The position numbers were made by a program, and so were the translations under genes. Positions 3,966-62,796 of a stretch of 64,000 bases of DNA are shown one piece after another. Position 1 is the stretch's first letter; each line of letters opens with the position of its first letter. This stretch comes from a virus. The notes under the pieces are model-generated. The model was not told the origin of the DNA and searched no databases. It worked only from the letters and a program-made list of their open reading frames with translations. The stretch lies in IMG/VR virus record IMGVR_UViG_3300047121_000347, positions 37,831 through 101,830 of that record, one strand, 5' to 3'.

Positions 3966-3981
3966 TTTCAGTTCTCCATAG

Positions 3982-4893: not shown

Positions 4894-4898
4894 TAGAC

Positions 4899-5081: not shown

Positions 5082-5117
5082 GTTTAGTTCTCCAATTAAG
5101 TTATTGAGTTGTTTCAT

Positions 5118-5684: not shown

Positions 5685-5713
5685 TTGCCGACTGCGAAAA
5701 ACGTGGGTATAAT
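5685..5713 (+). promoter_or_regulatory. Sigma70-like promoter upstream of left terS
   Basis: TTGCCG (5685-5690), a 17-base spacer and a perfect TATAAT (5708-5713). A transcript would start about 3 bases before ATG 5723 and so be almost leaderless. A comparable TTGCCT-18-TATAAT promoter precedes the second terS (63092-63121). Together they suggest late genes start here. Confidence 0.6.
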
Positions 5714-5722
5714 CCGGCGAAT

Positions 5723-6196: not shown

Positions 6197-7640
6197 TTCG
6201 GCGCTCCGGGACCTGCTGCAAGACGCAAAGCTGCGCGAAGAGTTCGGCCGGCTACCGCTCGAGCGGCAAGCCGCTTGGGCGTGGCGGGCGCTGTGGCTTT
6301 CGAAGGCGCACCTGCATCAGCTGCTGCCCCAGGGCGAATGGTGGAGCATATGGTTGATGTTGGCGGGCCGGGGCGCGGGCAAGACCCGCACCGCCGCCGA
6401 GCAGGTGGGGTGGTGGGCGTGGAGCTACCCCCGGACGCGATGGCTAGTGGCGGCGCCAACCTCCTCGGACGTGCGTGGCACCTGCTTTGAGGGCGACTCG
6501 GGACTGCTCACCGTGATTCCGCAGGTGCTCATCAGCGAGTACAACAAAGCACTGCACGAGTTGAAGCTGACCAACGGCTCGCTGATAAAAGGCATTCCGG
6601 CCTCGGAGCCCGAGCGGTTCCGGGGGCCGCAGTTTCACGGTGGATGGTGCGACGAGCTAGCGGCGTGGGAGTACCTGCAGGAGGCGTGGGACCAGATTCA
6701 GTTCGGTGTGCGCCTCAAGCTGCCCGACATGAAGTCCCGCCTGCTCATCACCACGACCCCCAAACCCCGCGACCTGATTGTTGACCTCATCAGCCGGGAA
6801 GGCACCGACGTCACCCTAACCACGGCGAGCACGTACGCGAACGTGGATAACCTGAGTGACAACTTCAAAGCGCAGATCCTGGCGTATGAGGGTACCAACC
6901 TCGGCCGGCAAGAGATCCACGCCGAAGTGATTGACCCGGAAGAAGGGGGTATAGTCAAGCGGGATTGGTTCAAGCTCTGGCCAGCGGAGAGAGAGCTCCC
7001 GAAGCTGGAGTTCATCGTTCAGTCGTACGACTGCGCGTATACGGAGAAGACGCACAACGACCCCACGGCGTCGATCACCTTCGGAGTGTTCAAGCCGCAA
7101 GACGGCCCGATGGGCGTGTTGGTCATCGACGCGTGGCAGGATCACCTGCAGTACCCCGACTTGAAACCCAAAGTCATCGACGAGTACGACATTGTCTTCG
7201 GCGAGGGGCGCAATCTGAAGAAGGTCGACCTCGTGCTCGTTGAGGACAAAGCGGCGGGCATCGTGCTCATTCAAGACCTGCAGCGTGCGCATGTGCCGGT
7301 GCGGGCGTACAACCCCGGCAAGGCCGATAAGATCCAGCGCCTGAGCATAGTTGCCAACATCGTCCGCGCTGGCCGGGTCTACATCCCGGAGTCTAGCGCT
7401 CGGACGGGCTACGTCCGTGACTGGGCCGAGGGCATGATCACGCAGATCTGTAGCTTCCCCAACGCCACGCACGATGACTTTGTGGATGCTTTCAGCCAGG
7501 CGCTGCGGTACATGCGCGATGCGGGTTGGCTCAACATTGACCCCGCGCCGCGTGATGACTACGACCCCGAGGATTACATTGACGCCCTCAATGACTCGGA
7601 CGACTACACCGGACCCAAGGTGAACCCCTATGCCGCCTAG
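6183..7640 (+). CDS. terL: Terminase large subunit
   Basis: ATPase and nuclease of the DNA-packaging motor. Walker A LAGRGAGKTRT is near residues 59-69, Walker B WCDEL near 155 and the coupling motif TTTPKP near 190. The nuclease acidic residues are visible in SYDCAY (about 282), VEDKAAG (about 353) and HDDFVDAF (about 430). I chose GTG 6183, which makes a 485-residue protein, because the second copy (63727) starts with the equivalent GTG and has the same 14-base overlap with terS; ATG 6168 is an alternative. Length is normal for the family. Confidence 0.95.
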   Translation: MGAADSALRDLLQDAKLREEFGRLPLERQAAWAWRALWLSKAHLHQLLPQGEWWSIWLMLAGRGAGKTRTAAEQVGWWAWSYPRTRWLVAAPTSSDVRGTCFEGDSGLLTVIPQVLISEYNKALHELKLTNGSLIKGIPASEPERFRGPQFHGGWCDELAAWEYLQEAWDQIQFGVRLKLPDMKSRLLITTTPKPRDLIVDLISREGTDVTLTTASTYANVDNLSDNFKAQILAYEGTNLGRQEIHAEVIDPEEGGIVKRDWFKLWPAERELPKLEFIVQSYDCAYTEKTHNDPTASITFGVFKPQDGPMGVLVIDAWQDHLQYPDLKPKVIDEYDIVFGEGRNLKKVDLVLVEDKAAGIVLIQDLQRAHVPVRAYNPGKADKIQRLSIVANIVRAGRVYIPESSARTGYVRDWAEGMITQICSFPNATHDDFVDAFSQALRYMRDAGWLNIDPAPRDDYDPEDYIDALNDSDDYTGPKVNPYAA

Positions 7641-10566: not shown

Positions 10567-10580
10567 GAGGAACCCGAGCT

Positions 10581-13142: not shown

Positions 13143-13290
13143 CCTCAAAGACAACGAAGCCGTCCCCTATCACAAGCGCATCGCCATGGGCGCGGCGCTC
13201 GACGGCACTAGTCTGAAGTCCAAAGGTAGCACCACCCCTCAACCCGCACAAAAAGGAGCCCCCGCCCCGCTAGCACGCAAAAACAAATGA
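13123..13290 (+). CDS. Small basic protein, 55 aa (GTG start)
   Basis: A short frame begins with GTG 13123, preceded by TAGGAG, inside the end of the portal gene, and ends in an ATGA overlap with the next gene. The product begins VAQPSNNLKDNEAV and ends LARKNK, basic and proline-rich and probably disordered. The tight coupling on both sides supports translation. Function unknown. Confidence 0.6.
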   Translation: MAQPSNNLKDNEAVPYHKRIAMGAALDGTSLKSKGSTTPQPAQKGAPAPLARKNK

Positions 13291-13478
13291 CCCTAACCCT
13301 GAGCCAACTGATTGGCGCATTCAAGGCACGTCAGGCTGAAATAGGCCATTCCCTAGCGGCGGGCAACGCTGCGACCTGGGAGGCGTACCAGCGCATGGTT
13401 GGCGAACACATGGGGCTGCAAAAAGCCCTTGACATTATTGAGAACTTTATAGAGGAAGAAGATGAACATGATGACTGA
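13287..13478 (+). CDS. Small conserved protein, 63 aa
   Basis: ATG 13287 overlaps the stop of the preceding gene. The product starts with a helix LSQLIGAFKARQAEIGHSLA and ends acidic (EEEDEHDD). It resembles short helical proteins found between portal and GroES/scaffold in environmental phages. No function assigned. Confidence 0.65.
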   Translation: MTLTLSQLIGAFKARQAEIGHSLAAGNAATWEAYQRMVGEHMGLQKALDIIENFIEEEDEHDD

Positions 13479-13902
13479 ACCAGTAGCGTCGCAAGACGCT
13501 GAGATGGCTTGGGCTTTCCCGAGCGTGGATCCTGGTGCGCAGCCGTTAGGTGGACGTATACTGGTGCAACTGCGCCGTAGCCGTAAAAAGACCACCAAAG
13601 CAGGAATCGTACTTGTTGAGGAAACCAAAGAGACCGAAAAGTGGAACACCCAGGTCGCCAAGGTCATCGCCGTGGGGCCGCTCGCCTTTCGGCATCGCGA
13701 CTCGATGAACCCCTGGCCCGAGGGGTCGTGGTGTGGGGTGGGTGACTTTATTCGTGTGCCCAAGTGGGGCGGCGACCGCTGGGAGGTCAAAGTGCCCGGT
13801 GAGGACCACCTTGAGGACCCCGCACTGTTCATGATCGTTAATGATCACGAGGTCATTGCCCGAATCACCACTAACCCCCTCGAGACTAAGGCATTCCTAT
13901 GA
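13462..13902 (+). CDS. GroES-like co-chaperonin
   Basis: A 146-residue protein with the Cpn10 layout: LGGRILVQLRRSRKKTTKAG, then IVLVEETKETEKWNTQVAKVIAVGP, a loop, VGDFIRVPKWGG and a last strand MIVNDHEVIARI. The region around KKTTKAGIVL corresponds to the mobile loop that contacts GroEL. Phage co-chaperonins (T4 gp31 is the known example) help the host chaperonin fold the capsid protein. The position before scaffold and capsid fits. Confidence 0.8.
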   Translation: MNMMTEPVASQDAEMAWAFPSVDPGAQPLGGRILVQLRRSRKKTTKAGIVLVEETKETEKWNTQVAKVIAVGPLAFRHRDSMNPWPEGSWCGVGDFIRVPKWGGDRWEVKVPGEDHLEDPALFMIVNDHEVIARITTNPLETKAFL

Positions 13903-14891
13903 GCACGAGCACCGAAGTAAAAGAACCCGATATCGAGATCACCGAGCAGCCCGACGGTTCAGTCGCGGTGGCGCTGCCGGAAGGTCTCGCTCCACCCTCG
14001 GTTCAAGATGACGATGAGGACGACTCACCGCAAAACAAAGCCGAAGGCGGCCCCGCCGACGACCCGGCTGACGCCGATGCCGACGACGACACCGAGGCGC
14101 TACGCAACGCCAAACGCGAGCGCCGCCGCGCCAAGCGCGAACTAGCCCGCAAAACCAGCGCCGAGAAAGACCAGCGGTTGCAACTGCTGCAGCGACAAAA
14201 CCAAGAGCTAATGGAGCGGCTGAGCGTGGTTGAGCGTAAAACGCACGCCGGCGAAATCGCCAAGCTCGACAAGGCGGTCGAAGACCAAGAGCTGCGGCTC
14301 GAGTACGCCAAGCGCAAGATCGCCGAAGCCACCCGTGCTCAAGACGGCGACGCCCTGGCGCAGGCCCAGGAGCTCTGGTACGAGTCGAGGCAACAGCTCG
14401 AAGCCTTGAAAAACCTCAAAAAGGCCAGCACCACCCCCCGGCAGCAGAACAACCTGCCCGATGCGAGGGTGCAGAAAATGGCCGCCGACTGGATTCGACG
14501 CAACGACTGGTACGACCCCCAGCACCGCAACACCGACTCCCGAATCGTCAAGCAGATAGACGAGGAACTCACCGCCGAGGGCGGTTGGGACCCGGCAACC
14601 GAGGAGTATTGGGAAGAGCTCGACGAGCGGGCAAAAAAGTACTTGCCTCATCGGTATGAATTGAGCTATAATGCTCCGAATCAGCGTTCAAGGCCTCGGA
14701 ATATGCAAACTAGCACCGGTCGCGAATCATCCAACAGTGGCGGCTCCCCCAAGGGGCAGTTCATGCTCGAACCGGATCAGGTACGCGCCATGAAGGATGC
14801 CGGCTTTTGGGACGACCCCGTCAAGCGCAACAGTATGATCAAGCGCTACGCGGCGGAAGCTCGCAAACGTGCTGCTGCAAACCCACGCTAA
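13899..14891 (+). CDS. Head scaffolding protein
   Basis: The 330-residue product has a very acidic, Asp/Glu-rich N-terminus (DDDEDDSPQ, DADADDDTEAL), a long central coiled coil (RNAKRERRRAKRELARK to LKNLKK) and a C-terminal tail KRYAAEARKRAAANPR. This layout, and its location between portal and capsid genes, fits a scaffold that guides procapsid assembly. There is no sequence match that I can name. Confidence 0.7.
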   Translation: MSTSTEVKEPDIEITEQPDGSVAVALPEGLAPPSVQDDDEDDSPQNKAEGGPADDPADADADDDTEALRNAKRERRRAKRELARKTSAEKDQRLQLLQRQNQELMERLSVVERKTHAGEIAKLDKAVEDQELRLEYAKRKIAEATRAQDGDALAQAQELWYESRQQLEALKNLKKASTTPRQQNNLPDARVQKMAADWIRRNDWYDPQHRNTDSRIVKQIDEELTAEGGWDPATEEYWEELDERAKKYLPHRYELSYNAPNQRSRPRNMQTSTGRESSNSGGSPKGQFMLEPDQVRAMKDAGFWDDPVKRNSMIKRYAAEARKRAAANPR

Positions 14892-14909
14892 TTCAAAGGA
14901 CGCACACAA

Positions 14910-15458
14910 ATGGATTCAAGACTTAAGAAATCTCTCTCCGCCGGTGGACGCGAAAGCCGCGCAAGCGAAGACCTCGACCGCCTTCCGCCGGAGACTATGT
15001 TCGCCGCCTCACAGGACATCGACAAGATGTGGAGTGACGAGTGGACGCAAACCGCCCTGCCGAACGTGCCCGCCCTGCCGGGTTGGCACATGTGCTGGCT
15101 TTCCACCACCAACAGCTACGACACGATTGACAAGCGAATCCGACTGGGGTACGTTCCGGTGACAGCCGATGAGTTACCTGGGTTTGAGAATTATCGCGTA
15201 AAAGCGGGCGAGCATGTGGGTCACATTTCGTGCAACGAAATGTTGCTGTTCAAGATTCCGACTGAACTCTACCAGCGGGTCATGGCGCATTTCCATTATC
15301 AAAAACCAATGGAAGCAACTCAAGCGATCATGGAACGTATGGAGGAACTTCAGCAGGGCGCTGACAGCTCAGGACACAAACTCCTGAAAACGGAAGGCGA
15401 AGGCTTCGGACGAGTGGCACAATCATCCGTCAACCGACCCCCGGTCTTCGAGGGTTAA
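14910..15458 (+). CDS. Conserved head-region protein, 182 aa
   Basis: The protein carries a mixed alpha/beta section (WHMCWLSTTNSYDTIDKRIR, LGYVPVTADEL, VGHISCNEMLLFKIP) and a helical C-terminus with MEATQAIMERMEELQQ. I have seen similar products between scaffold and capsid genes of environmental podoviruses but know no function. A GAAAGGA-like site precedes ATG 14910. It could be a capsid accessory or completion protein. Confidence 0.6.
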   Translation: MDSRLKKSLSAGGRESRASEDLDRLPPETMFAASQDIDKMWSDEWTQTALPNVPALPGWHMCWLSTTNSYDTIDKRIRLGYVPVTADELPGFENYRVKAGEHVGHISCNEMLLFKIPTELYQRVMAHFHYQKPMEATQAIMERMEELQQGADSSGHKLLKTEGEGFGRVAQSSVNRPPVFEG

Positions 15459-15476
15459 ATTGGAGTTTACAATATC

Positions 15477-16091
15477 ATGTCTGCAACCTTAGCACCCTTT
15501 GGTTTGCGGCCTGCGTATCACCCCTCGGGGCTCGATCGTGCGCAGGGGCTAGCCAATGTGATTCAGTCGGGGTATGCTCAGAACATCTTGAAGGGTCAGG
15601 CCGTTAAGCTCGACCCCACAACTGGGTATATCGTTCGTGCCGCGAGTGGCGATCCAATCTACGGCGTCTTTGATGGCGTCGAGTGGACCGACACCACGGG
15701 GCGTCGTCGTGTGTCGAACTGCTGGCCCGCCAACACGGGCTATCAGACCGGCTCGCTCATTGCGTATGTGTGGACTGACCCCAAAGTGGTTTACGAAATC
15801 CAAGCCGAAGGCTCGATTGCGCAAACCGCCCTGGGCCAAGAGTACGACATCACCAACCCGTATAACCCGACTTCGGGCGACCCGACGCTGGTGGGTCTGT
15901 CTCAGGCCACTATGGGCACTACGGCGGCCGCCTCCAACGCCACCAAGACCCTGCGCGTGGTCGATCTGGCTCCGTATCCGGGCAATGCATGGGGTGATTC
16001 GTACACGATCGTTCGTGTGCAGATTGCCGAGTTCCAGTACGCTGGTATTTACGAAGGTGCGGCGGTGGCTTACCCCGTTACCGTAGCTTAA
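15477..16091 (+). CDS. Putative capsid decoration/accessory protein, 204 aa
   Basis: A beta-rich protein directly upstream of the major capsid gene. Features are MSATLAPFGLRPAYHPSGLD at the start and several predicted strands ending in GIYEGAAVAYPVTVA. Gene order (scaffold, this gene, capsid) and composition suggest a head decoration or stabilisation protein, as inference from position. No family is recognised with certainty. Confidence 0.55.
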   Translation: MSATLAPFGLRPAYHPSGLDRAQGLANVIQSGYAQNILKGQAVKLDPTTGYIVRAASGDPIYGVFDGVEWTDTTGRRRVSNCWPANTGYQTGSLIAYVWTDPKVVYEIQAEGSIAQTALGQEYDITNPYNPTSGDPTLVGLSQATMGTTAAASNATKTLRVVDLAPYPGNAWGDSYTIVRVQIAEFQYAGIYEGAAVAYPVTVA

Positions 16092-16105
16092 AGGAGGGCT
16101 AACAA

Positions 16106-17023
16106 ATGGCAGCCCCAATGCGCAGTACGGACTTTCGGAGCATCGTTGAGCCTATCCTGAACGAGTGCTTCGACGGAGTCTATGATCAGCGTGCCGATGA
16201 GTGGTCGCGAGTCTTCCGCGAGCAGAACGGCATCCCCCGTAATTACCATGAGGAACCCGTCCTGTACGGTTTTGGCTTGGCACCGTTGCTCCCCGACGGC
16301 AGCCCCGTAACCTATCAGCAAGGTGGCGTGTTGTTCCTGAAGCGTTATGTCTACTCGGTGTACGGTCTAGCCTTCGCGTTGACGAAAGTCCTCGTCGAAG
16401 ACGGCGACCACATCCGCATCGGGTCGGTGTACGCTCGTCACCTGGCACAGTCTTTGGTCGAGACCAAAGAAACCCTGTGCGCCAACGTGCTGAACAACGC
16501 CTTCACGGGCGGGCAGTATGCCGGTGGTGACGGTGTAGCGCTTAACAGTGCCTCACACCCCATCGTGAACGGTACGGTGAGCAACCTCCTCACCACAGCG
16601 GCCAACCTCAGCCAGACCTCCCTTGAGCAGATGCTCATTCAGGTGCGTCAGGCGGTTGACAACAACGGCAAAAAGATTCGCCTCGTGCCACGACAGCTCG
16701 TCGTCGCCCCAGGCAACATCTTCCAAGCCGAAGTGTTGCTCAAGAGTGTGCTGCGTGCCGGTCAAGCCAACAACGACATCAACCCAGTCAAATCTATCGG
16801 TTTGCTCGATGAAGGTGCTGCGGTTCTGTCGCGTTTGACCAGCTCGACCGCATGGTGGGTGCAGACCGACACGCCCGAAGGTATGAAGCTCATGATGCGT
16901 CGCGGCCTTGAAAAGACCATGGAAGGTGATTTCGAAACCGACTCCATGCGCTACAAGGCCACCGAGCGTTACGATGTGGGCTTTACCGATTGGCGCGCAA
17001 TGTACGGCACGCCCGGAGTCTAA
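16106..17023 (+). CDS. Major capsid protein, gpT-like (HK97 fold)
   Basis: The 305-residue product has the features of Mu gpT-like capsid proteins: an N-terminal helix region (IVEPILNECFDGVYDQ), an A-like section with LVVAPGNIFQAEVLLKSV and a C-terminal domain ending TDSMRYKATERYDVGFTDWR, a typical gpT-family ending. It has a strong AAGGAGG ribosome site, as expected for a highly expressed protein, and is followed by a hairpin terminator. It forms the shell hexamers and pentamers. Confidence 0.9.
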   Translation: MAAPMRSTDFRSIVEPILNECFDGVYDQRADEWSRVFREQNGIPRNYHEEPVLYGFGLAPLLPDGSPVTYQQGGVLFLKRYVYSVYGLAFALTKVLVEDGDHIRIGSVYARHLAQSLVETKETLCANVLNNAFTGGQYAGGDGVALNSASHPIVNGTVSNLLTTAANLSQTSLEQMLIQVRQAVDNNGKKIRLVPRQLVVAPGNIFQAEVLLKSVLRAGQANNDINPVKSIGLLDEGAAVLSRLTSSTAWWVQTDTPEGMKLMMRRGLEKTMEGDFETDSMRYKATERYDVGFTDWRAMYGTPGV

Positions 17024-47617: not shown

Positions 47618-47871
47618 CTGTCTTGATTAGTGTAGCCGGAGGTCGGTTCAGCACCGTCGGACTGCTCAGTGTGGCGAGCGATCTCGATGTATTTCTCAAG
47701 AAAGTGCTGTGCCTTGAGCAGGTCCGTGAGACCGTTCTTACGTTTCCAACGCGTTACATATTTAGTGATCTGACCCTGAAAATAGTCAAGGTCGTTAGCG
47801 ACGACGTAGTCCCAGTGCTGAATGCCGGAGCGGTAATGCGAGCCGGCGACTTGTTTTTCGTTAGCACTCAT
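47614..47871 (-). CDS. DUF3310 (SaV-like) protein, 85 aa
   Basis: ATG 47871 gives MSANEKQVAGSHYRSGIQHW, then DYVVANDLDYFQGQITKYVT and RWKRKNGLTDLLKAQHFLEK, the complete DUF3310 pattern seen in phage nucleotide-kinase-like SaV proteins. It usually occurs with replication genes; its activity is not firmly known. Overlaps the HD gene upstream by 11 bases and the polymerase gene by 4. Confidence 0.85.
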   Translation of the reverse strand: MSANEKQVAGSHYRSGIQHWDYVVANDLDYFQGQITKYVTRWKRKNGLTDLLKAQHFLEKYIEIARHTEQSDGAEPTSGYTNQDR

Positions 47872-48355
47872 AACGTAACCCCTTGATGATGTTGAAAAGG
47901 TCAAGCTCACGACCCGACAGGATAAACTCATGCGCGTACGCAACGTAACGATCGTGAACCTCGAGCATCCGCCGGTTGCCGAGCTGCACCTCACGTAGGC
48001 AAAACACCGCCCCGTGAGCTATGTCGGCGAGCTTGAGCGTGCGCTGATCGCAGGCGTTGAGCTCGGGGTACACGATGCCCGCATCGAGCATTAGCCGCCG
48101 CTCGAGTTTATCAACCTGATCGCCTATGCCGTATTCGCGTTTGGCTGGCGAGGGGATGTCGCCCGTATACTGCTCGGCGAGGTCATGAAACAACGCAGCC
48201 AGGAGCAACTGACGACTGGCGTCCGGGTTTAGCAGCAAGGTAAAACAGGCAACACCATGCGAATGGTGACCGACGGTTTCAGTTTGCAGGGTCGTGAGCG
48301 TGTGAAAGCGTTTGACTTCGCTTCCGTTGATGATGAACTGAAGGGTTTTTCTCAT
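47861..48355 (-). CDS. HD-domain 5'-deoxynucleotidase (YfbR-like)
   Basis: A 164-residue HD phosphohydrolase. The metal site is visible as ETVGHHSHGVACF (His about 33), LLAALFHDLAEQYTGDIPSP (HD at 57-58) and a later LADIAHGAVF. Enzymes of this family dephosphorylate deoxynucleoside monophosphates. Next to a thymidylate-synthase-fold enzyme, it could remove dTMP or dUMP so that a modified pyrimidine replaces thymine. Its ATG follows the conserved ATAACTTTTAACTTGAGAACT leader. Confidence 0.82.
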   Translation of the reverse strand: MRKTLQFIINGSEVKRFHTLTTLQTETVGHHSHGVACFTLLLNPDASRQLLLAALFHDLAEQYTGDIPSPAKREYGIGDQVDKLERRLMLDAGIVYPELNACDQRTLKLADIAHGAVFCLREVQLGNRRMLEVHDRYVAYAHEFILSGRELDLFNIIKGLRYEC

Positions 48356-48427: not shown

Positions 48428-49417
48428 TTAGCGCTTGCGAGCTGCTTCGCGCCGCTCAACCCAGTCCATGGTTGCGCTACGCCAATCGGTAGCCCGAACC
48501 GAAGCGGCCTCCACCCGGCCCGTTTCCCCTGCCCGGCGAGCCGCACTGACCATAGCCATCGGGCGGGCGACCTCGCTCAGGAAAGTGTTACGGTATGGGT
48601 TGTTAGCCAGCGGGTCGGTGCAGAACCACTCACACTCGTACAGGAACAGCTGCGGGTCGGGCTCGGTCATCAACGCACGCGGCGTAACCATCCCCCGCCA
48701 GTACCGATCAAATTCACTCGCCTGAGGTGGGAGGCTGATATACTGGTCGGCTTTGTACAGGTGGGTGTAGAGGTGCATGTTGGCGCTGACCTGCCGGTAG
48801 ATCCCGAGCGGCACTCCGAGCGCGGTGGCTATGAACTCCTGCAGCACGCTGAAATGCACCGCGTTAGCACCCAACGCACCCCACCAGATATCATTGCTAC
48901 GGTTCAACACGGTCATGTCGAGTCGGCCGGCTTGGGTTTCAAAGATGATCTGCGTGTTGCAGGCTTTGTCTTTGGTGGTCTTGGTGAGATCGGCTGGGTC
49001 CCAGATCTGCACCACCGCCTGACGGCTCTGGGGGTCGCGACGTAACACGTCTATCACCGCGAGCAGTTGATCAAAACCAAAGTGCCGACGCCAGCGGTAA
49101 CCGTACGCAGCGTTAAACGTCACGCCGTCATCGCTATACTGCCTGATGCGACTGTTGAACCGCTCAAGAAACGCGACGTCGTTGCGCCCCGCGAGCATCC
49201 AAATCGACTCCAGCAGGTGAAATATCGGGTTAGCGTCACGCCCCTCATGAAACAACACCCGCTCCTGAGGTTTGAGGTAAGTGATGATGAAAGTGTCTGT
49301 GAACGTAATAGCGGGTCCGTTACGCGTATTGCGCAGGTGCGTAGGATACGTGCGGAGCTTCCAGAATACCTCCGCGAACGCTTCGTTGACGTTGGTGGCT
49401 GTGATTGTATAGGACAT
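48428..49417 (-). CDS. Thymidylate-synthase-fold enzyme, candidate dUMP hydroxymethylase
   Basis: A 329-residue thymidylate synthase family member. The catalytic Cys is C153 in TKDKACNTQIIF; the substrate-binding RSND motif is at 173-176, followed by WGALGANAVHFSVLQEF, a form typical of phage homologues in which the spacing to the substrate Asn is one longer than in ThyA. It could make dTMP or, in the context of the hypermodification genes upstream, 5-hydroxymethyl-dUMP. The family alone cannot separate these. Its closest neighbours are the base-modification genes and the HD nucleotidase. Confidence 0.8.
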   Translation of the reverse strand: MSYTITATNVNEAFAEVFWKLRTYPTHLRNTRNGPAITFTDTFIITYLKPQERVLFHEGRDANPIFHLLESIWMLAGRNDVAFLERFNSRIRQYSDDGVTFNAAYGYRWRRHFGFDQLLAVIDVLRRDPQSRQAVVQIWDPADLTKTTKDKACNTQIIFETQAGRLDMTVLNRSNDIWWGALGANAVHFSVLQEFIATALGVPLGIYRQVSANMHLYTHLYKADQYISLPPQASEFDRYWRGMVTPRALMTEPDPQLFLYECEWFCTDPLANNPYRNTFLSEVARPMAMVSAARRAGETGRVEAASVRATDWRSATMDWVERREAARKR

Positions 49418-49421
49418 GATC

Positions 49422-50342
49422 TTAGAACGCCTTCTCGGGTTTGTATCGGGTCTTGGGGACGCCTTCGCCCAGCACAGTGCGAGCGTACTTGCTGTACTCG
49501 CACATGACGTTCTGCACGTCGTGTAGGGTGAGGTCGGTGATGTCGAGCTTTGTTTTGATCGCTTCGTTCAGTTCGATGAGCTTTTTGTTGAACTGCGCCG
49601 GGTTCCACACCGCGAAAGGCTTACGCCCGGTTAGGTAGTTCAACCCTCTCAAGCTACCCGGCCCTATGGGAGCGTAGGTGTAGAGATCCAACGCAGTGCC
49701 CAGGTGCTCATCCGAGTAGGTCAAGTCGGCGGCCACCTGTCCAGCCATAAAGGTGCTGATGCCAAAACTACCGGCGAGTAGGTTCACAAACTTCTCGATG
49801 CTCGGCTTGGCGTAACTGAGCTCTTCCTCAATCGCCTCCTGCAGCTGCGCGGCCGGCTGAATAATATGCCGAGCGATGGCGAGGCTTTTCAAACCGTCGG
49901 GGTCTTTCTTAGTGGGGTAAACCATATACGCCCCGCTGTAGATCTTATCAACCTTGCTGCGATAGTCCTCAACCACTCGGCTGAACGCCTCGGGTGAGAA
50001 GTCACGCGGCGCGACGGGCAACTGTTTCTCGTAGATTAACGTGAGCAGCGTTGGCGGCCAGTTGATGAGCCGAGCGATGAGCAACGTGAACCACAGGTCA
50101 GGACGTTTCTCATCGGGTTGGATCAAATACCTGATGATCCAACGGGAAACGCGGTCATCCCGGCGACGAATGTTCGTGAACTTGTAATCGCGCAGGATAG
50201 GGTCCTCGGTAAACGGAGGAGCCACACCGCTGCTATAAGCGATGTTGACTACTTCGCGTTCCCATACGAAGTAGAGCAACCCGTCAACCGAGGCGACCTG
50301 CTCAGCGGTGGTGGGGCGCGGGTAGGGACATTCTTCAATCAT
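49422..50342 (-). CDS. Putative DNA base hypermodification protein (HMUDK_hel-like)
   Basis: The motif KFTNIRRRDDRVSRWIIRYL near residues 54-73, followed by LLIARLINWPPTLL and later YSGAYMV and LYTYAPIGPGSLRGLNYLTG, matches the family annotated as putative DNA base hypermodification protein, the helical partner of 5-hmdU DNA kinases. The family includes enzymes or scaffolds that act on phosphorylated hydroxymethyluracil in DNA. It overlaps the kinase gene by 4 bases, so the two are coupled. Exact chemistry not known from sequence. Confidence 0.75.
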   Translation of the reverse strand: MIEECPYPRPTTAEQVASVDGLLYFVWEREVVNIAYSSGVAPPFTEDPILRDYKFTNIRRRDDRVSRWIIRYLIQPDEKRPDLWFTLLIARLINWPPTLLTLIYEKQLPVAPRDFSPEAFSRVVEDYRSKVDKIYSGAYMVYPTKKDPDGLKSLAIARHIIQPAAQLQEAIEEELSYAKPSIEKFVNLLAGSFGISTFMAGQVAADLTYSDEHLGTALDLYTYAPIGPGSLRGLNYLTGRKPFAVWNPAQFNKKLIELNEAIKTKLDITDLTLHDVQNVMCEYSKYARTVLGEGVPKTRYKPEKAF

Positions 50343-50905
50343 GCTTCAAACTCCTCAATTATGCTCATGAGTTGCGGATGTGGGTCGGTGTAGTCGATGA
50401 GCCGCACGTCATAGCCCGCTGCGCGGAGGTTTTTATAACAGTTCACCACCGAATCGAACTTATCGACAAGGTTCTTCGGGTTAAATGGTTTCTCATTACC
50501 GGCGGTCAGGCGACGTTGCTTGACGCGCTCTATGCACAACTCGAGCGGGGTGTTCAGGAAAGCGTACACGTCACAGCCCGTGGGGTGAACGGCCTGGGTT
50601 ACGGCTCCGCCGAGCCCACTCGCTGAGACCAACGCCCCTTCATAGAGCACGTGGCCTAGCGGGTGGGCGCGGAGGATCTTCTCGGCTATCTCAGCCTGGG
50701 TCTTGATGGCATCCGTACCGCCGCAGGTGTTATCGTACTTGCCGATCACATACACCGGCCGTTTCAGCTGGGTAGGAGCGACCCGATAACCGGCGATTCG
50801 CGCTCCGCTCATCAATGTGTCGTTCGGGTAGGAAAAGAATTGACGCACGGCGGTGGTCTTACCCGACCCAAAGGTGCCCGCCACACGCAGTATCACGTTA
50901 CGCAT
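50339..50905 (-). CDS. P-loop kinase, 5-hydroxymethyluracil DNA kinase-like
   Basis: A 188-residue P-loop enzyme with Walker A GTFGSGKTT (10-18). The motif KYDNTCGGTDAI (56-67) and YEGALVSASGLGG (88-100) match DNA-modification P-loop kinases that phosphorylate 5-hydroxymethyl-dU in DNA, the step that activates the base for amino-acid attachment. A generic nucleotide kinase is the alternative, but the neighbours argue against it. The ATG follows GGAGAACT (conserved leader motif). Confidence 0.75.
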   Translation of the reverse strand: MRNVILRVAGTFGSGKTTAVRQFFSYPNDTLMSGARIAGYRVAPTQLKRPVYVIGKYDNTCGGTDAIKTQAEIAEKILRAHPLGHVLYEGALVSASGLGGAVTQAVHPTGCDVYAFLNTPLELCIERVKQRRLTAGNEKPFNPKNLVDKFDSVVNCYKNLRAAGYDVRLIDYTDPHPQLMSIIEEFEA

Positions 50906-50920
50906 GTTCTCAGTTCTCCG

Positions 50921-51931
50921 TTATAGAAAGTGTTCCGCTCGGTAGGGTTGCCCCTGCTCGGGAAATATACCTGCTTTTTCCCGCAAAGACAAGCGCTCCG
51001 TTTCACATTCAGCGCGCAACCAATCCGGCAGGTTCAAGCTCCTGATGTCTTTGAACACTCCGGTGAACTCACTCAGACCACGAGCATCCGCCCACTCGAT
51101 CCGTTCCCAGGCCATATCGGCGTAAACACCGGGGTAGCGTCGTCCGAAGAAATGATTCTTGAACGTACAAAGGTTACTCTCCAACGTGAAGAACGAGGCG
51201 TTGGGCGTGTCGTAGTTGGCTTCCGTAAAGTCAAATAGTACGTTGTCAGCCTCACGACTCAGCCAGTTACACATCCCTTCAAAGTTAAAATAATTGCCGT
51301 CAAAATCATTGTTAGCGCGTTTATCCCAGACCAGTTGGTCATGCCCGGTGAGGAACAACATACCGTTGCGATGTGAACGAGAACCAGATTTATCACTAAA
51401 AAGCAGATCATCACAGTCGGCTCCGTATCCGTTCAGGTGGACGTACTCCAGGTAACTGAACGATGATAACCGACCAAACGAGAAGTAGTGGTTGCGTACA
51501 AGTTTCCACAACTCGGCGTAGGTCTTTCCGGTGAGCATAGCGAACTGCGAGCCGCCGTGTTCGGCCACCAAGTTGGCGTAGGTCTTTATGGCTTCGACGG
51601 TGTCGGCTTTTTGATACCGTCGGTCGGTGTCGTACTGCAGCCGGTCCCACTCCGCGTTGAACCACTCGCTGAATTGTGTTAGAGCCGCGCCGGGCGGCGG
51701 AACACCGGGCAGCCGGGAAGCCAACCTGAGCGAAGTAATGGGGTTCTGAGTGAGACCGTTCAAAAAGGCAAACCAGAGCTTCTGCTCATGGTCCCAGCCG
51801 TAACGCTGCGCCAGTTCGGGCATGTACAAGTACACCAACCCCGGCATGATTCCGTAAGTCAGGTTCAGACCGTAGAGCTTATCAAAGTACTCGCGACGGT
51901 TTTCCGGCAATCGGTAATCTTTAACGCTCAC
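50921..51931 (-). CDS. Candidate amino-acid:DNA transferase (aGPT-PPlase-like)
   Basis: I start it at GTG 51931 (VSVKDYRLPENRREYFDKLY), which overlaps the PLP-enzyme stop as GTGA and has a GGAG ribosome site. The 336-residue protein contains LNLTYGIMPGLVYLYMPELA, WFAFLNGLTQNPITSLRLAS and FFTLESNLCTFKNHFFGRRY, which fit the alpha-glutamyl/putrescinyl thymine pyrophosphorylase-type families, shown or proposed to attach amino acids or amines to activated hydroxymethyluracil. Family assignment is from memory and needs a profile search. Confidence 0.6.
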   Translation of the reverse strand: MSVKDYRLPENRREYFDKLYGLNLTYGIMPGLVYLYMPELAQRYGWDHEQKLWFAFLNGLTQNPITSLRLASRLPGVPPPGAALTQFSEWFNAEWDRLQYDTDRRYQKADTVEAIKTYANLVAEHGGSQFAMLTGKTYAELWKLVRNHYFSFGRLSSFSYLEYVHLNGYGADCDDLLFSDKSGSRSHRNGMLFLTGHDQLVWDKRANNDFDGNYFNFEGMCNWLSREADNVLFDFTEANYDTPNASFFTLESNLCTFKNHFFGRRYPGVYADMAWERIEWADARGLSEFTGVFKDIRSLNLPDWLRAECETERLSLREKAGIFPEQGQPYRAEHFL

Positions 51932-52884
51932 TGCACACTCCTCAGGTAGTAGGGTTCGATGACTTTGGGGTTGGGCGCGGAGCCTACAATCCAGAAACCC
52001 CAAGAGTCGTCCTGCGGGATGAACCGACGCTCGCGCTGCCAGCGCCAGATCTTGGCTTCGTAGGTGGGGTGAAACTCGATGCTGCTAAACCGCTCGCCCT
52101 TGAACTTATCGCTATACCGACTGTACCCCGTGGTGTGGAGGCTGTAATGCTGCCACGCGAACGGCAGGTTCGTAACGTCGATACCGATCTTCTGCATACG
52201 CTCGCGCACCCAGGTGTGCTTTTCGGGGCCGATACCGATCGTGACAAGGCGCTTGAGGTTGTGCGGTCTGCGGCTCAACCCTAGCAGCACGCTGCAAAGG
52301 CTGTTGCACGACCCGGCGGGCATGACCAGATTTTCAACCGAATCGGGAAGGTTTTCAACCTGCCGAGCGCCGACCTCATGAAACTTACGCACGTCGTCGG
52401 CCGGGTAGCGTTCATGAGGTACGGTGATACCATACTCAACGACCAGCGACTTCTCCTGCGTCAGGTCGGCCACCCGGCGCTGAATGATCGGGTTGTACGG
52501 ACCGTTGGTGTACTCAAACTCAGCGCCGAACCCGTAGGCTATACGCGGGTTTTCATGGCTCAAAACTGTCTCCGGCTTACTGTACACCACCTGACGAGCA
52601 CGGAGTCCGTAATGTGCACCCACTATAGCGGACATGCTCAGCTGGGGGGACTGAATGCTCGCGCCGGTGACGATGTGCGTCTTACCTTCGCGATACCGAT
52701 TCACGTACCAAATCAACTGCCGCATCTTTGACCCGTTGGGACCGCCGTAACCGAGCGGAGCAAAGTAGTCATCGCGTTTGAACCAGATACCGTCGTGGTT
52801 CTCCCACGGGGTGAACGCCCCGAGGTACGCCTCCCACTGTATCTGATCGCGGTTCAGGGCGAACTGCGGAAACACGCTGCTCAT
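51928..52884 (-). CDS. PLP-dependent enzyme (ACC deaminase/D-Cys desulfhydrase fold)
   Basis: 318 residues from ATG 52884, which overlaps the TGA of the tiny membrane-protein gene (ATGA); ATG 52896 is an alternative. The PLP lysine is K53 in PLGYGGPNGSKMRQLIWY, followed by TGASIQSPQ (74-81, equivalent to the GxxQSNH substrate loop) and the phosphate loop MPAGSCNS (188-195). In phages with hypermodified thymine a PLP enzyme remodels the attached amino acid, e.g. by decarboxylation; this protein is a good candidate for such a tailoring step. Confidence 0.72.
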   Translation of the reverse strand: MSSVFPQFALNRDQIQWEAYLGAFTPWENHDGIWFKRDDYFAPLGYGGPNGSKMRQLIWYVNRYREGKTHIVTGASIQSPQLSMSAIVGAHYGLRARQVVYSKPETVLSHENPRIAYGFGAEFEYTNGPYNPIIQRRVADLTQEKSLVVEYGITVPHERYPADDVRKFHEVGARQVENLPDSVENLVMPAGSCNSLCSVLLGLSRRPHNLKRLVTIGIGPEKHTWVRERMQKIGIDVTNLPFAWQHYSLHTTGYSRYSDKFKGERFSSIEFHPTYEAKIWRWQRERRFIPQDDSWGFWIVGSAPNPKVIEPYYLRSVQ

Positions 52885-53015
52885 ATCAGGTTCCATCCGA
52901 AGTTAAACAGCAGGTTAAGAATACGCAAGCCCAACCCCAGCAGCACCGATCCGCTAAGGAGCAAGATCACCCAGCTCATGATCCACAAGAGGAAATAAAC
53001 ATTTTCACGCGACAT
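52881..53015 (-). CDS. Tiny membrane protein, 44 aa
   Basis: Found by reading the gap: ATG 53015 with AAGGAG at 7-base spacing, and its TGA overlapping the next ATG (ATGA). The product starts MSRENVYFLLWIMSWVILLL and continues with SGSVLLGLGLRILNLLF, i.e. one long or two short membrane segments, and ends FNFGWNLI. It is inside the DNA-modification operon and translationally coupled to the PLP gene. Function unknown. Confidence 0.6.
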   Translation of the reverse strand: MSRENVYFLLWIMSWVILLLSGSVLLGLGLRILNLLFNFGWNLI

Positions 53016-59631: not shown

Positions 59632-59946
59632 ATGCAAAAGAAACGCAACATGCGCGGCGACCCCGGCGGCCCTGATGACGAGCCGGGCTGCTCACGGGAC
59701 CCCGCACACCCCCACGGTTTCGACCGCAACGCCAGCCACAACGCCGGACGTTACGTGTGCCTTTGCGAAGGGTTCCTGGACGCCACCGTGGACGACGGCT
59801 CGTTGGCGGTGGTGCGCGAACTGGCGCAACGCGACGACTACGTCATGGTGCACGCCACGGAGCTACAAGAGCTGCTCGCTCAGCTGGACGAGCTGCGCGA
59901 TCGGGTAACCGCACTCACGTATAAAGAGGAGAAACAAAGATGGTGA
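59632..59946 (+). CDS. Conserved phage protein, 104 aa (right copy)
   Basis: Orthologue of 3651-3965 on the opposite strand, with only scattered changes and the same Cys/His residues (DPAHPHGFDRNASH, YVCLCEGF). I start it at ATG 59632 (MQKKRNMRGDPG) after GGAG. Function unknown; its preservation through inversion shows it is not dependent on its strand. Confidence 0.75.
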   Translation: MQKKRNMRGDPGGPDDEPGCSRDPAHPHGFDRNASHNAGRYVCLCEGFLDATVDDGSLAVVRELAQRDDYVMVHATELQELLAQLDELRDRVTALTYKEEKQRW

Positions 59947-60194
59947 AGAACTACGTCGCGGGTCAATCCACGTGGCGACTACCCGCCGAGGACCCCCCGC
60001 CGTTGGGGGTGAAGATGCTCCTCCTGAACCGAGGGGGCGTGTGCGTCATAGGCACTTGGGGTGCGTGGGCGTTGGCTTGGGCACCGTTGCCGCTCATCCC
60101 CGAGCACATAAAAGCGGCGCTGCTCCCGGCGGGGTATGCCCGGCAGCTCGAACCCGTTGAAGATTGGAAACTACACGCAGGAGACGCCGCATGA
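59940..60194 (+). CDS. DUF551-like small protein, 84 aa (right copy)
   Basis: Orthologue of 3403-3657 with the same TWRLPAED, GVKMLLLNRGGVCVIGTWG and WAPLPLIPE blocks and only a few substitutions. It overlaps both neighbours, as in the left block, confirming that local gene order (59632 then this gene) was kept when the block was inverted. Confidence 0.7.
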   Translation: MVKNYVAGQSTWRLPAEDPPPLGVKMLLLNRGGVCVIGTWGAWALAWAPLPLIPEHIKAALLPAGYARQLEPVEDWKLHAGDAA

Positions 60195-60610
60195 GCCGAG
60201 AGCTAATGAAGCTGGCGCTAGAAGAATTGCAAAACGCCCGCGATCATATTTACCTACTGCCCGAGAACGAGCAGCCTCTCACCGAAGAGCAGATTCTCAA
60301 CCGCATCAACGCGGCTATCACCCTTTTGCATCAAGAGGTGTACGGCGACGCTAATGACACATCCCAAAAATGCGCAGGGAAGCAAGAACCCGTAGCGTGG
60401 ATGCACACAACCGGAACCGGGCACGTGTACTTCCGCAAGAAGCCGCAAGACAAGGTGTTCAACCCGCAGCCTGTGTTCACCGCACCGCCAAAAGCTGCTG
60501 AATGGGTTGGGCTGACGCTAAATGAAGCAGAAGATTTCTACGAGAAATACCCTGACAGGGCGGAGCTCATTAACGCCATAGACAAGTTCCTTGAGGAGAA
60601 GAACGCATGA
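60191..60610 (+). CDS. Accessory protein with EWVGLT module, 139 aa
   Basis: ATG 60191 overlaps the previous stop (ATGA). It begins MSRELMKLALEELQNARDHI, a variant of the MSREAM helical module, and carries FTAPPKAAEWVGLT, after which it diverges from the family with NEAEDFYEKYPDRAELINAI. No known function. It fills the position that NinX and the 71-residue gene have in the left block. Confidence 0.68.
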   Translation: MSRELMKLALEELQNARDHIYLLPENEQPLTEEQILNRINAAITLLHQEVYGDANDTSQKCAGKQEPVAWMHTTGTGHVYFRKKPQDKVFNPQPVFTAPPKAAEWVGLTLNEAEDFYEKYPDRAELINAIDKFLEEKNA

Positions 60611-60987
60611 GCGATTCATACGATGATTACGAGTCAAAAATGCAACTTGCAGAACACGCATGGGAGGTAAAAACTGAACACGACCGTGCGGTTGAGCTGG
60701 CGAAGGCCTACGAGCGCGGATGGAATGCAGCATTAGCGCAACAAGAGCCGGTGGCAGAGATTCAAGCCGAAGATATGGGGAAACCATTTAACGCAATACG
60801 GGTGACGGTTCATTTCTACGCAGAAGTGCCTGCTGTGGGTACGAAACTCTACAAAGCACCACCAAAGCGTGAATGGGTTGGGCTGACTGATGAAGAGGTT
60901 AATGAGCTGGTTGCTCGGTTTAAACGGTATGCCTATGTATTGCTCCGTGAAGTCGAAGCCAAACTCAAGGAGAAGAATCATGGATAG
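60607..60987 (+). CDS. Accessory protein with EWVGLTDEE module, 126 aa
   Basis: The N-terminus is helical (MQLAEHAWEVKTEHDRAVEL, AKAYERGWNAALAQQEPVAE); the C-terminus, from KLYKAPPKREWVGLTDEEVN to EVEAKLKEKNHG, matches the shared module of 2395 and 61309. It ends in the AATCATGGATAG junction found at the end of 2395-2853, so the last ~10 codons are nearly identical DNA in different genes. Confidence 0.68.
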   Translation: MSDSYDDYESKMQLAEHAWEVKTEHDRAVELAKAYERGWNAALAQQEPVAEIQAEDMGKPFNAIRVTVHFYAEVPAVGTKLYKAPPKREWVGLTDEEVNELVARFKRYAYVLLREVEAKLKEKNHG

Positions 60988-61312
60988 AGAAGCTATGAAA
61001 CACACACCGGGGCCGTGGGTTGTTGATCCAGCAGTCCGTCAAGGCTTCACGGTCTACGCACCGAAAGAAGGATTCATCGTGGGAACGCAAGATGAAGAAG
61101 GACGCTACGGTGCAATTGAATCAGAAGCCAACGCTCGCCTGATCGCCGCCGCGCCTGATTTGTTGGAAGCGTTACAACAAGCCACGTCTGCTCTTGAGTG
61201 GCGCTGGGAAAGAGTCGCAAACTGCGCAGCACCAGTACACGAGACAGCCATTCAGGAAGCCTACAACCAAGCCCGCGCCGCCATCGCCAAGGCAACAGGA
61301 GAGAAATCATGA
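60980..61312 (+). CDS. Accessory protein, 110 aa
   Basis: ATG 60980 is inside the end of the previous gene. The sequence KHTPGPWVVDPAVRQGFTVY, then NARLIAAAPDLLEALQQATS, is typical of a widespread phage family (HTPGPW...ANA.LIAAAP.LLEAL). It ends QARAAIAKATGEKS, the same ending as 2850-3065. No function is known. Confidence 0.72.
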   Translation: MDREAMKHTPGPWVVDPAVRQGFTVYAPKEGFIVGTQDEEGRYGAIESEANARLIAAAPDLLEALQQATSALEWRWERVANCAAPVHETAIQEAYNQARAAIAKATGEKS

Positions 61313-61659
61313 GCAGAGAAGCTATGCAGATGGCGCTTGAGGCGTTGGAGTTGTACCAAAGCAAAAGCAGCGTTCAAATGTTTGACGATGCCGTTAAAGC
61401 CCTGCGCCAAGCACTGGAGACAGAGCAAGAACCGGTGTGTTGGACTGTTGCCGATGGATGGGTTTATGCCAACGACACGAGCCAAATTGGTACTTCAAAG
61501 GAAGTTAATTGGCAGACCCTCTACACCGCACCACCAAAGGCTGCTGAATGGGTTGGGCTGACGGATGAGGACATGGAAGCACTTTTCTTGAATGAGGACG
61601 GTGTGAGGTTTGCCCGATACATCGAAGCCAAGCTGCGGGAGAAGAATCATGGACATTGA
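61309..61659 (+). CDS. Accessory protein with MSREAM and EWVGLTDE modules, 116 aa
   Basis: ATG 61309 overlaps the previous stop (ATGA). It is the counterpart of 2395-2853: the first ~45 residues (SREAMQMALEALELYQSKSS to LRQALETEQ) and TLYTAPPKAAEWVGLTDEDM agree, while the middle is different and shorter. It ends with IEAKLREKNHGH. Function unknown. Confidence 0.72.
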   Translation: MSREAMQMALEALELYQSKSSVQMFDDAVKALRQALETEQEPVCWTVADGWVYANDTSQIGTSKEVNWQTLYTAPPKAAEWVGLTDEDMEALFLNEDGVRFARYIEAKLREKNHGH

Positions 61660-61924
61660 AAAGATTAGGGTACGGATTATGTCCGAAGCCTACGACCTCG
61701 CAGACCGAGGCGATTTTGAAGGTTACAACGCGGTCAAAGTGATGTGTGGTGATGTGTTGGAATCAATAGCTGCTGTCGTCGCTGCCGAGCGCGAGGCGTG
61801 TGCCAGATTATGCGACCAGATGTTTCATGACTGGTGCAATCAAGAATTTGAAGACGAGGACGAGGCTTACAGAAACAAACCTGATGCCGAGGATTGCAAG
61901 AAAGCTATACGAGAAAGGAGTTAA
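61649..61924 (+). CDS. Small protein with AAVVAAEREACARLC module, 91 aa
   Basis: ATG 61649 is within the end of the previous gene (AATCATGGACATTGA). It contains the block SIAAVVAAEREACARLCDQM, related to AALVAAAEREAC of the small paralogues, followed by an acidic section (EFEDEDEAYRNKPDAED). It occupies the place of the gene at 1957-2226 but with a different N-terminus. Function unknown. Confidence 0.66.
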   Translation: MDIEKIRVRIMSEAYDLADRGDFEGYNAVKVMCGDVLESIAAVVAAEREACARLCDQMFHDWCNQEFEDEDEAYRNKPDAEDCKKAIRERS

Positions 61925-61926
61925 AC

Positions 61927-62169
61927 ATGACAGGCAACATCAAACCGTTCATCAAGGCTACAACCCATGACAACTCTGAGGCCGTAACCATGCTGGAGCA
62001 GTGGTTGGAAGACGCCAAGTCTGGGGAGATCGTCACGGTGGCTATTGTCGGCAAACGCATAGGCGGCGAATGGCAGACAGGCATGAGCAGCAGTCAAAAT
62101 CGCCTTGAGGACGCCGCAATGCTCATCGAGTTGGGTATGCGTCGGCTTGGCTTTAACCCACAGAGGTAA
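61927..62169 (+). CDS. Conserved small protein, 80 aa (right copy)
   Basis: Orthologue of 1712-1954 (MTGNIKPFIKATT, MLEQWLEDAKSGEIVTVAIV). The ribosome site AAAGGAG and the start are the same. Almost all differences are silent or conservative. Confidence 0.75.
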   Translation: MTGNIKPFIKATTHDNSEAVTMLEQWLEDAKSGEIVTVAIVGKRIGGEWQTGMSSSQNRLEDAAMLIELGMRRLGFNPQR

Positions 62170-62172
62170 CGT

Positions 62173-62310
62173 ATGCGAAAAAGTTTACATCTAACTACTG
62201 AATTCTTGCCGCGCAAGTGGCCCTGCTTCGCCGTGGGGTTCGTGAGTAGTGGCAGCGAATTTGTACTGCACCTGTATCTGGTGTGCTTCCGTATTCGATG
62301 GGGGTATTGA
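62173..62310 (+). CDS. Conserved 45-residue protein (right copy)
   Basis: Orthologue of 1571-1708; start, stop, ribosome site (GAGGT) and nearly every base are the same. The very high DNA identity compared with neighbouring genes suggests recent exchange or strong constraint on the DNA itself. Confidence 0.6.
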   Translation: MRKSLHLTTEFLPRKWPCFAVGFVSSGSEFVLHLYLVCFRIRWGY

Positions 62311-62311
62311 A

Positions 62312-62569
62312 ATGACCCAAGATGAAATCGTCAAGATGGCGCGAGAGGCTGGGCTTGTACGCACAGGAGACAAGTGGGTGGAGCCAGCGCGTTGGGGTGT
62401 AACTGAGCTTGTCCATTTCGCCGCCCTTGTCGCCGCAGCCGAGCGCGAGGCGTGTGCTGAATTGGCGGTGAAAGGGACGGACGAACCCGTGCAAACCAAG
62501 ACGCTTGAGATATTACGCAAAGAACGTGAGCGTATTGCCGCCGCCATACGAGCAAGGGGTGAGCAGTGA
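62312..62569 (+). CDS. Small protein of the EIxxMAREA / AALVAAAEREAC family, 85 aa (right copy)
   Basis: Orthologue of 1336-1569 with the same MTQDEI start and the HFAALVAAAEREAC block. The central part (GLVRTGDKWVEPARWGVTEL) and the C-terminus differ, so the family evolves by replacing the middle and tail. Overlaps the following gene by 4 bases. Confidence 0.7.
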   Translation: MTQDEIVKMAREAGLVRTGDKWVEPARWGVTELVHFAALVAAAEREACAELAVKGTDEPVQTKTLEILRKERERIAAAIRARGEQ

Positions 62570-62796
62570 ACACCGCAGACTACGAACGTGCTTTGAGGGA
62601 CCTTGAGGACATCAAACGCACCCTAGCAGCGCTCCGCGCCAACGTGAACATGTTGATGTTTGCCGCTGCGGCGGCCGAGAACGAGCAGTGCGCCCGGCTG
62701 ATTGAACGCATGGGCACTGATGGCTACGGCACGTTGGCGATAGCCGCTGCGGTGCGGCAGCGTATGTTCGACGGCCCTGACCGTTCGGTGCACTAG
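62566..62796 (+). CDS. Conserved small protein, 76 aa (right copy, GTG start)
   Basis: Orthologue of 893-1120, about 95% identical in DNA, but the start is GTG 62566, overlapping the previous stop (GTGA). The last residues are different (DGPDRSVH versus DGPGAIH), because the gene runs into the repeat region. It is the last gene before the repeats. Confidence 0.75.
   Translation: MNTADYERALRDLEDIKRTLAALRANVNMLMFAAAAAENEQCARLIERMGTDGYGTLAIAAAVRQRMFDGPDRSVH

What the first reader, a model, noticed from the sequence alone, without database searches (positions are those of the whole stretch)
48428..52884. Predicted thymine hypermodification cluster
Five co-oriented, overlapping genes encode a thymidylate-synthase-fold enzyme, a putative base-hypermodification (HMUDK_hel-like) protein, a P-loop 5-hmdU-DNA-kinase-like enzyme, a candidate amino-acid:DNA transferase and a PLP-dependent enzyme. 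This is the gene set established for thymine hypermodification (hydroxylate dUMP, incorporate, phosphorylate in DNA, add amino acid, tailor). I see no radical-SAM or acetyltransferase gene next to it, so the end product could differ from the known ones.
Basis: partly seen in the sequence, partly recalled or inferred. Interest (0 to 1): 0.88.

Follow-up and report, generated by a model that had tools for sequence, protein, structure and literature searches.

The report
Mosaic phage thymine-hypermodification gene cassette
An uncultured phage carries a compact five-gene kit that probably replaces part of the thymine in its DNA with a bulky, positively charged base that blocks restriction enzymes; the kit joins the first-half genes of one known phage type to the second-half genes of another, and a sister lineage has lost the last gene.

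Summary
Five co-oriented, near-overlapping minus-strand genes encode a TS-fold dUMP hydroxymethylase, the two components of a 5-hmdU DNA kinase (HMUDK_hel plus P-loop HMUDK), an amino-acid:DNA transferase (ADDT) and a fold-type-II PLP enzyme. No radical-SAM or Nmad5 gene was found in the record. The cassette is a mosaic. TS, HMUDK_hel and kinase are of the Pseudomonas phage M6 type and sit in an M6-like block. ADDT and PLP are of the Salmonella phage ViI type. The best prediction is therefore ViI's known base, 5-(2-aminoethoxy)methyl-dU: hmdUMP made and incorporated, phosphorylated in DNA, serine added, then decarboxylated. The amino acid and product are inferred, not shown. The order PLP-ADDT-kinase-hel-TS recurs in dozens of uncultured phage contigs. 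One nested clade has lost the PLP gene; it may end at the un-decarboxylated adduct, which would be a new base. Most of its testable members carry a different PLP enzyme elsewhere, of unknown relevance. The window is itself a join of two related phages: about 1-16.2 kb belongs to the PLP-less sister, the rest to the phage with this cassette. New variant of a known kind.

The parts
51928..52884 (-). PLP-dependent enzyme, fold type II (phrog_3650, same family as ViI Vi01_182/orf00226); predicted decarboxylase of the amino acid attached to DNA. The ORF can be read from 52896, but homologues and the ATGA overlap with the upstream peptide favour 52884
   Evidence: 33.7% identity to ViI, family profile 261 bits against 10.9 for M6 gp52; Lys57 (PLP Schiff base, numbered from 52896) invariant in 63 proteins
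50921..51931 (-). Amino acid:DNA transferase (ADDT, phrog_3271, ViI Vi01_199/orf00247 type); predicted serine transfer onto 5-phosphomethyl-dU in DNA; GTG start overlaps the PLP stop
   Evidence: PF18724 3e-17; AlphaFold pLDDT 90.7, best PDB match 8z2m/8z2n 5-PmdU glycinyltransferase; GSxSxRNG motif shared with ViI, absent in M6
50339..50905 (-). P-loop 5-hmdU DNA kinase (HMUDK_HMUD1)
   Evidence: PF18748 2.1e-6; Walker A residues invariant; family profile 65 bits to M6 gp54, 36 bits to ViI
49422..50342 (-). 5-hmdU DNA kinase helical partner (HMUDK_hel); all-helical model with weak likeness to HhH DNA glycosylases
   Evidence: PF18723 3e-39; profile 167 bits to M6 gp55; pLDDT 92.1
48428..49417 (-). 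TS-fold dUMP 5-hydroxymethylase (catalytic Cys153, uracil-type Asn185)
   Evidence: best PDB match CMP 5-hydroxymethylase 84.9 bits against 53.6 for the best thymidylate synthase; 46% identity to M6 gp58
47861..48355 (-). HD-domain YfbR-like 5'-deoxynucleotidase, probable dNTP-pool accessory next to the cassette (also next to TS in M6)
52881..52979 (-). Small hydrophobic peptide (MSWVILLLSGSVLL...LFNFGWNLI) ending at the PLP start; in the PLP-less sister the equivalent peptide abuts ADDT directly, which marks the edge of the PLP gain/loss

Best explanation
A post-replicative thymine-hypermodification pathway. (1) The TS-fold enzyme makes 5-hydroxymethyl-dUMP, which enters DNA in place of part of the T (inferred from family). 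(2) The P-loop kinase with its helical, glycosylase-like partner flips out and phosphorylates 5-hmdU in DNA, giving 5-phosphomethyl-dU (inferred). (3) ADDT displaces the phosphate with an amino acid, most likely serine through its hydroxyl (inferred; specificity not shown). (4) The PLP enzyme decarboxylates the attached serine, giving 5-(2-aminoethoxy)methyl-dU (5-NeOmdU), the base of phage ViI, which shields DNA from restriction. Shown here: the families, the gene order, the mosaic ancestry (M6-type first half, ViI-type second half) and conservation of key residues.
For: Family hits for all five proteins. Profiles from about 58-74 relatives per gene: TS 350 bits to M6 against 160 to ViI, hel 167 to M6, kinase 65 against 36; ADDT 115 bits to ViI and no hit to M6 gp51; PLP 261 bits to ViI against 10.9 to M6. 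TS resembles CMP 5-hydroxymethylase more than any thymidylate synthase. ADDT model matches 5-PmdU glycinyltransferase, Foldseek probability 1.00, TM 0.53-0.63. No radical SAM, the extra gene of the M6 route. ADDT motif GSxSxRNG and PLP Lys57 invariant. PLP present in 60 of the 69 relatives whose neighbourhood is visible. dN/dS 0.05-0.18 where it could be estimated. ViI DNA carries 5-NeOmdU (PMC6449724; PMC11721090).
Against: ADDT is only about 27% identical to ViI's and PLP about 34%, so amino-acid specificity could differ; other members of the same ADDT family (Mycobacterium and Glutamicibacter phages) have no product known to me. ViI's second kinase (HMUD2, PF18747) was not found, though no control rang. 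ADDT Foldseek E-value is only 0.035. No chemistry or virion DNA is available. The assignment of ViI and M6 steps to particular genes rests on my recollection of Lee et al. 2018 and 2022, which the library does not hold.
Confidence: 0.62

Rival explanations
1. Same pathway, but ADDT transfers an amino acid other than serine (for example glycine or threonine), or the PLP enzyme does a different reaction (elimination or aldol cleavage), giving a base not yet described.
For: Low identity to the ViI enzymes; the ADDT family also serves phages without this PLP enzyme; the nearest structural relative is a glycinyltransferase; a fold-type-II PLP enzyme is nearer to D-cysteine desulfhydrase and ACC deaminase than to classical decarboxylases.
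Against: ADDT and PLP both belong to ViI's own PHROG families and are co-inherited over dozens of contigs; parsimony favours the ViI pair doing the ViI reaction.
Confidence: 0.27
2. The sequence stops early: the DNA carries only 5-hmdU or its phosphate, and ADDT and PLP are idle or act on free metabolites.
For: No experimental data for this phage; the PLP gene has been lost once in the sister clade.
Against: All five genes intact, conserved catalytic residues and purifying selection where measurable; an ADDT with the fold of an enzyme acting on 5-PmdU in DNA.
Confidence: 0.06
3. The TS-fold gene is an ordinary thymidylate synthase and the cluster is ordinary nucleotide metabolism.
For: PF00303 hit and PHROG label thymidylate synthase.
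Against: About 30 bits nearer to CMP 5-hydroxymethylase than to any TS in the PDB; fixed beside two kinase components and ADDT, which have no role in nucleotide pools.
Confidence: 0.03

Closest known systems
Salmonella phage ViI (Vi01, Ackermannviridae) 5-NeOmdU pathway
   Same: ADDT of the same PHROG (phrog_3271) and PLP enzyme of the same PHROG (phrog_3650); TS and P-loop HMUDK present
   Different: In ViI the genes are scattered over the genome (TS and kinase at 37-39 kb, PLP at 141 kb, ADDT at 151 kb) and a second kinase HMUD2 is present; here five genes form one tight cassette and the kinase/hel/TS are M6-type
Pseudomonas phage M6 (Mesyanzhinovviridae) 5-NedU pathway
   Same: TS 46%, hel 32% and kinase 29% identical; the same block kinase-hel-TS-HD-DUF3310 and a gp49-like gene upstream
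   Different: M6 has its own ADDT (phrog_6364), PLP enzyme (phrog_7093), radical SAM and Nmad5; here gp51-gp52-gp53 are replaced by a ViI-type PLP-ADDT pair and Nmad5 is missing. Structural genes and DNA polymerase of the window phage gave no match to M6
PaMx11 gp46 5-PmdU glycinyltransferase (PUGT, PDB 8z2m/8z2n)
   Same: Best structural match of the ADDT model, same overall fold
   Different: 13-15% identity, glycine transferase by its title; different sequence family
Glutamicibacter phage Montesquieu cluster
   Same: ADDT (38%), PLP (30%), kinase-like, HMUDK_hel and TS genes present; ADDT and PLP adjacent
   Different: Gene order differs, hel and TS lie several kb away; product unknown

Membership tests
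5-hmdU-based thymine hypermodification cluster | TS-superfamily pyrimidine hydroxymethylase | tested here: met
   PF00303; best PDB match CMP 5-hydroxymethylase; Cys153 and Asn185 invariant. Activity itself not testable.
5-hmdU-based thymine hypermodification cluster | 5-hmdU DNA kinase | tested here: met
   PF18748 over cut-off and PF18723 at 3e-39, Walker A invariant
5-hmdU-based thymine hypermodification cluster | Amino acid:DNA transferase or aGPT-PPlase | tested here: met
   PF18724 3e-17; fold of 5-PmdU glycinyltransferase
5-hmdU-based thymine hypermodification cluster | Hypermodified thymidine present in virion DNA | not testable with these tools
   Needs LC-MS of phage DNA
ViI-type (5-NeOmdU) pathway | ViI-family ADDT and ViI-family PLP enzyme | tested here: met
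   phrog_3271 and phrog_3650; profile scores 115 and 261 bits to ViI, no significant score to M6
ViI-type (5-NeOmdU) pathway | Serine specificity of ADDT and decarboxylase activity of the PLP enzyme | not testable with these tools
   No PDB hit to ADDT by sequence; the two ViI papers are not held
ViI-type (5-NeOmdU) pathway | Second kinase HMUD2 (PF18747) as found in ViI | tested here: inconclusive
   No hit in the record, but no control genome rang; may not be essential to the route
M6-type (5-NedU) pathway | Radical-SAM isomerase and M6-family ADDT/PLP in the cluster | tested here: not met
   No radical SAM in the record or 16 relatives; ADDT and PLP outside M6 families

The most novel reading that the evidence does not exclude
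The sister lineage (phage A, present in the left part of this same record and as a clean 60.8 kb contig) keeps TS, hel, kinase and a ViI-type ADDT but has lost the ViI-type PLP gene, and so carries an un-decarboxylated amino-acid adduct of thymine (for example O-seryl-5-hydroxymethyl-dU, a zwitterionic base) as its final DNA modification; or it tailors the adduct with an unrelated M6-family PLP enzyme encoded near the terminase. Either could be a DNA base not yet described, in a natural plus/minus pair with the window phage.
Probability: 0.3. Interest if true: 0.7.

Novelty: new variant of a known kind. Interest (0 to 1): 0.45.

Why it matters
It shows that the thymine-hypermodification route is built of two exchangeable halves: a make-and-activate half (hydroxymethylase plus kinase) and an attach-and-trim half (transferase plus tailoring enzyme). 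The closely related pair with and without the PLP gene, 74-89% identical in the other four proteins, is a natural experiment on what that gene does to the final base. The compact cassette is also a convenient source of ViI-type enzymes for testing ADDT specificity and for making DNA with amino-bearing thymines.

Tried and rejected
Cellular genomes: a scan of 84,980 species found no relative of this ADDT, so host and cellular origin remain open. PDB sequence searches with ADDT, alone and as a profile, found nothing; only the fold search worked. HMUDK_hel fold search gave only weak glycosylase-like matches, so its base-flipping role is inference. Idea that the sister phage simply has its PLP gene elsewhere: the ViI-type gene is absent from its 60.8, 57.5 and 45.7 kb contigs; an M6-family PLP gene is present in most but not all, and its nearest phage relatives are fused to or beside N4/N6 DNA methylases, so its link to thymine is doubtful. 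Idea that the window phage is a Mesyanzhinovviridae member: only the nucleotide-metabolism block resembles M6. Papers with the original chemistry (Lee 2018, 2022; Wen 2024; Iyer 2013) are not held. Promoter and terminator scans were no better than chance.

Full report
Observation. Five minus-strand ORFs lie end to end at 48428-52884. Junctions are coupled: the PLP stop overlaps the GTG start of ADDT, kinase and hel overlap by ATGA, and the other two gaps are 4 and 15 nt. Pfam and PHROG place them as PLP enzyme (phrog_3650; PF00291 below cut-off), ADDT (PF18724), 5-hmdU DNA kinase (PF18748), 5-hmdU kinase helical domain (PF18723) and TS superfamily (PF00303). PHROG's label 'terminase small subunit' for the kinase (phrog_800) is probably a misannotation; M6 gp54 and the ViI kinase carry it too.

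Two phages in one record. The window is 37,831-101,830 of a 101,830-base virus record, and ADDT occurs twice in that record. The left copy belongs to a second phage, here A, about 80% identical at the nucleotide level over this region. A exists alone as a 60,781-base contig, G003. The record's left part (loci L003/L004), window 1-1553 and window 1711 to about 16.2 kb are 100% identical to it; from there identity falls, and the record continues as the second phage, B, which holds the cassette of this finding. Independent contigs L018 and L019 cover B's cassette at 98.1% and 96.5%. The record is therefore most likely a chimeric assembly, but the cassette is real.

Ancestry. Against annotated phages, TS, hel and kinase are nearest to M6 and its kin, while ADDT and PLP are nearest to Ackermannviridae (ViI), Vibrio, Glutamicibacter and, for ADDT, Mycobacterium phages. 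Profiles built from the relatives make the split sharp: ADDT scores 115 bits to ViI and does not find M6 gp51; PLP scores 261 to ViI and 10.9 to M6 gp52; TS 350 to M6 and 160 to ViI; hel 167 to M6; kinase 65 to M6 and 36 to ViI. M6 has the order gp49, ADDT, PLP, radical SAM, kinase, hel, Nmad5, TS, HD, DUF3310; the window has gp49-like, PLP, ADDT, kinase, hel, TS, HD, DUF3310. So the inner attach-and-trim segment has a different origin from its M6-like frame. Structural genes and polymerase are not M6-like.

Distribution. One IMG/VR scan gave 78 ADDT loci and a second 69 PLP loci. The order PLP-ADDT-kinase-hel-TS-HD-Pol is stable in nearly all. No radical SAM or Nmad5 was found in sixteen long records each (no control rang for Nmad5). 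Of the loci whose upstream side is visible, 60 have PLP and 9 do not. In the ADDT tree the six PLP-less loci nearest the window form one supported clade with phage A (100/94), sister to B (99/96) and nested among PLP bearers: one loss. The gene is cut out between a small hydrophobic peptide gene and ADDT. The other three PLP-less loci are L032 (a fragment) and L086/L087, which pair this ADDT with a Tet/JBP oxygenase, a different way to make 5-hmU. In L042, L043 and L091 the PLP gene lies some kilobases away on the other strand.

Mechanism. The TS-fold protein is about 30 bits nearer to CMP 5-hydroxymethylase than to thymidylate synthase; Cys153 and Asn185 are invariant, the Asn being the uracil-recognising residue by general knowledge of TS. 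The ADDT model (pLDDT 90.7) matches the 5-PmdU glycinyltransferase of phage PaMx11 first and 8-oxoguanine glycosylases next, fitting a base-flipping enzyme that works on phosphorylated 5-hmdU in DNA. ADDT carries GSxSxRNG, shared with ViI-type and lacking in M6-type proteins. The hel model is weakly glycosylase-like. PLP keeps Lys57 in all 63 proteins compared, M6-type included. dN/dS, where it could be estimated, is 0.05-0.18. From published work as I recall it (Lee et al. 2018, 2022), ViI adds serine and decarboxylates it, M6 adds glycine and needs a radical-SAM enzyme. ViI DNA contains 5-NeOmdU (PMC6449724). Hence the prediction of 5-NeOmdU.

Sister phage. Phage A lacks the ViI-type PLP gene in its 60.8 kb contig and in two other long contigs of its clade. 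G003, G010, the fragment G002 and A's part of this record carry an M6-family PLP gene (phrog_7093; window 3982-4902); G006 does not, and no PLP-bearing relative has a strong match. Its nearest phage relatives are joined to or beside DNA methylases, so a role in thymine tailoring is open. If no enzyme trims the adduct, A's DNA would carry the amino-acid adduct itself, a base not yet described to my knowledge.

Verdict. A real and complete thymine-hypermodification cassette, a new mosaic variant of a known kind. The pathway class is about 0.93 likely, the product 5-NeOmdU about 0.6. Combinations of these genes in metagenomes were already reported as a general phenomenon (Lee et al. 2022, from memory), which limits novelty; the PLP-loss pair is the most useful new element.

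Noticed in passing
window 1-16200 against 16200-64000: The window joins two related phages: up to about 16.2 kb it matches the independent 60,781-base contig G003 at 100% (positions 1-1553 and from 1711), then it switches to another phage. The whole 101.8 kb record is probably a chimeric assembly.
   Followed up: yes
window 3982-4902 (-): A second PLP-fold gene, of M6's PLP family (phrog_7093), near the terminase of phage A; nearest phage relatives are fused to or beside N4/N6 DNA methylases. Found only in the lineage that lost the cassette's PLP gene.
   Followed up: partly
window 909-3965 and 59632-62777: Inverted block shared by the two phages at 87-94% identity, above the roughly 80% of the flanking regions; possible invertible or recently exchanged segment.
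   Followed up: no
window 52881-52979 (-) and L004 near 12386-12530: Small hydrophobic peptide ending in LFNFGWxL just upstream of PLP (phage B) or ADDT (phage A), with a similar end in L026; unannotated.
   Followed up: partly
L085:3461-4219, L086:2436-3209, L087:7241-8014: Unknown protein of about 250 aa (12 loci) directly before ADDT, no Pfam match, with DPFGG and DFPHF motifs reminiscent of DNA methyltransferases; candidate extra tailoring enzyme.
   Followed up: partly
L085-L087: The same ADDT subfamily sits beside a Tet/JBP oxygenase (PF12851) and a different P-loop protein instead of TS/hel, so 5-hmU may be made by oxidising T in DNA there.
   Followed up: partly
window 50339-50905; M6 gp54; ViI Vi01_061c: phrog_800 labels these 5-hmdU DNA kinases 'terminase small subunit', and the same label appears in the M6 and ViI GenBank records.
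   Followed up: no
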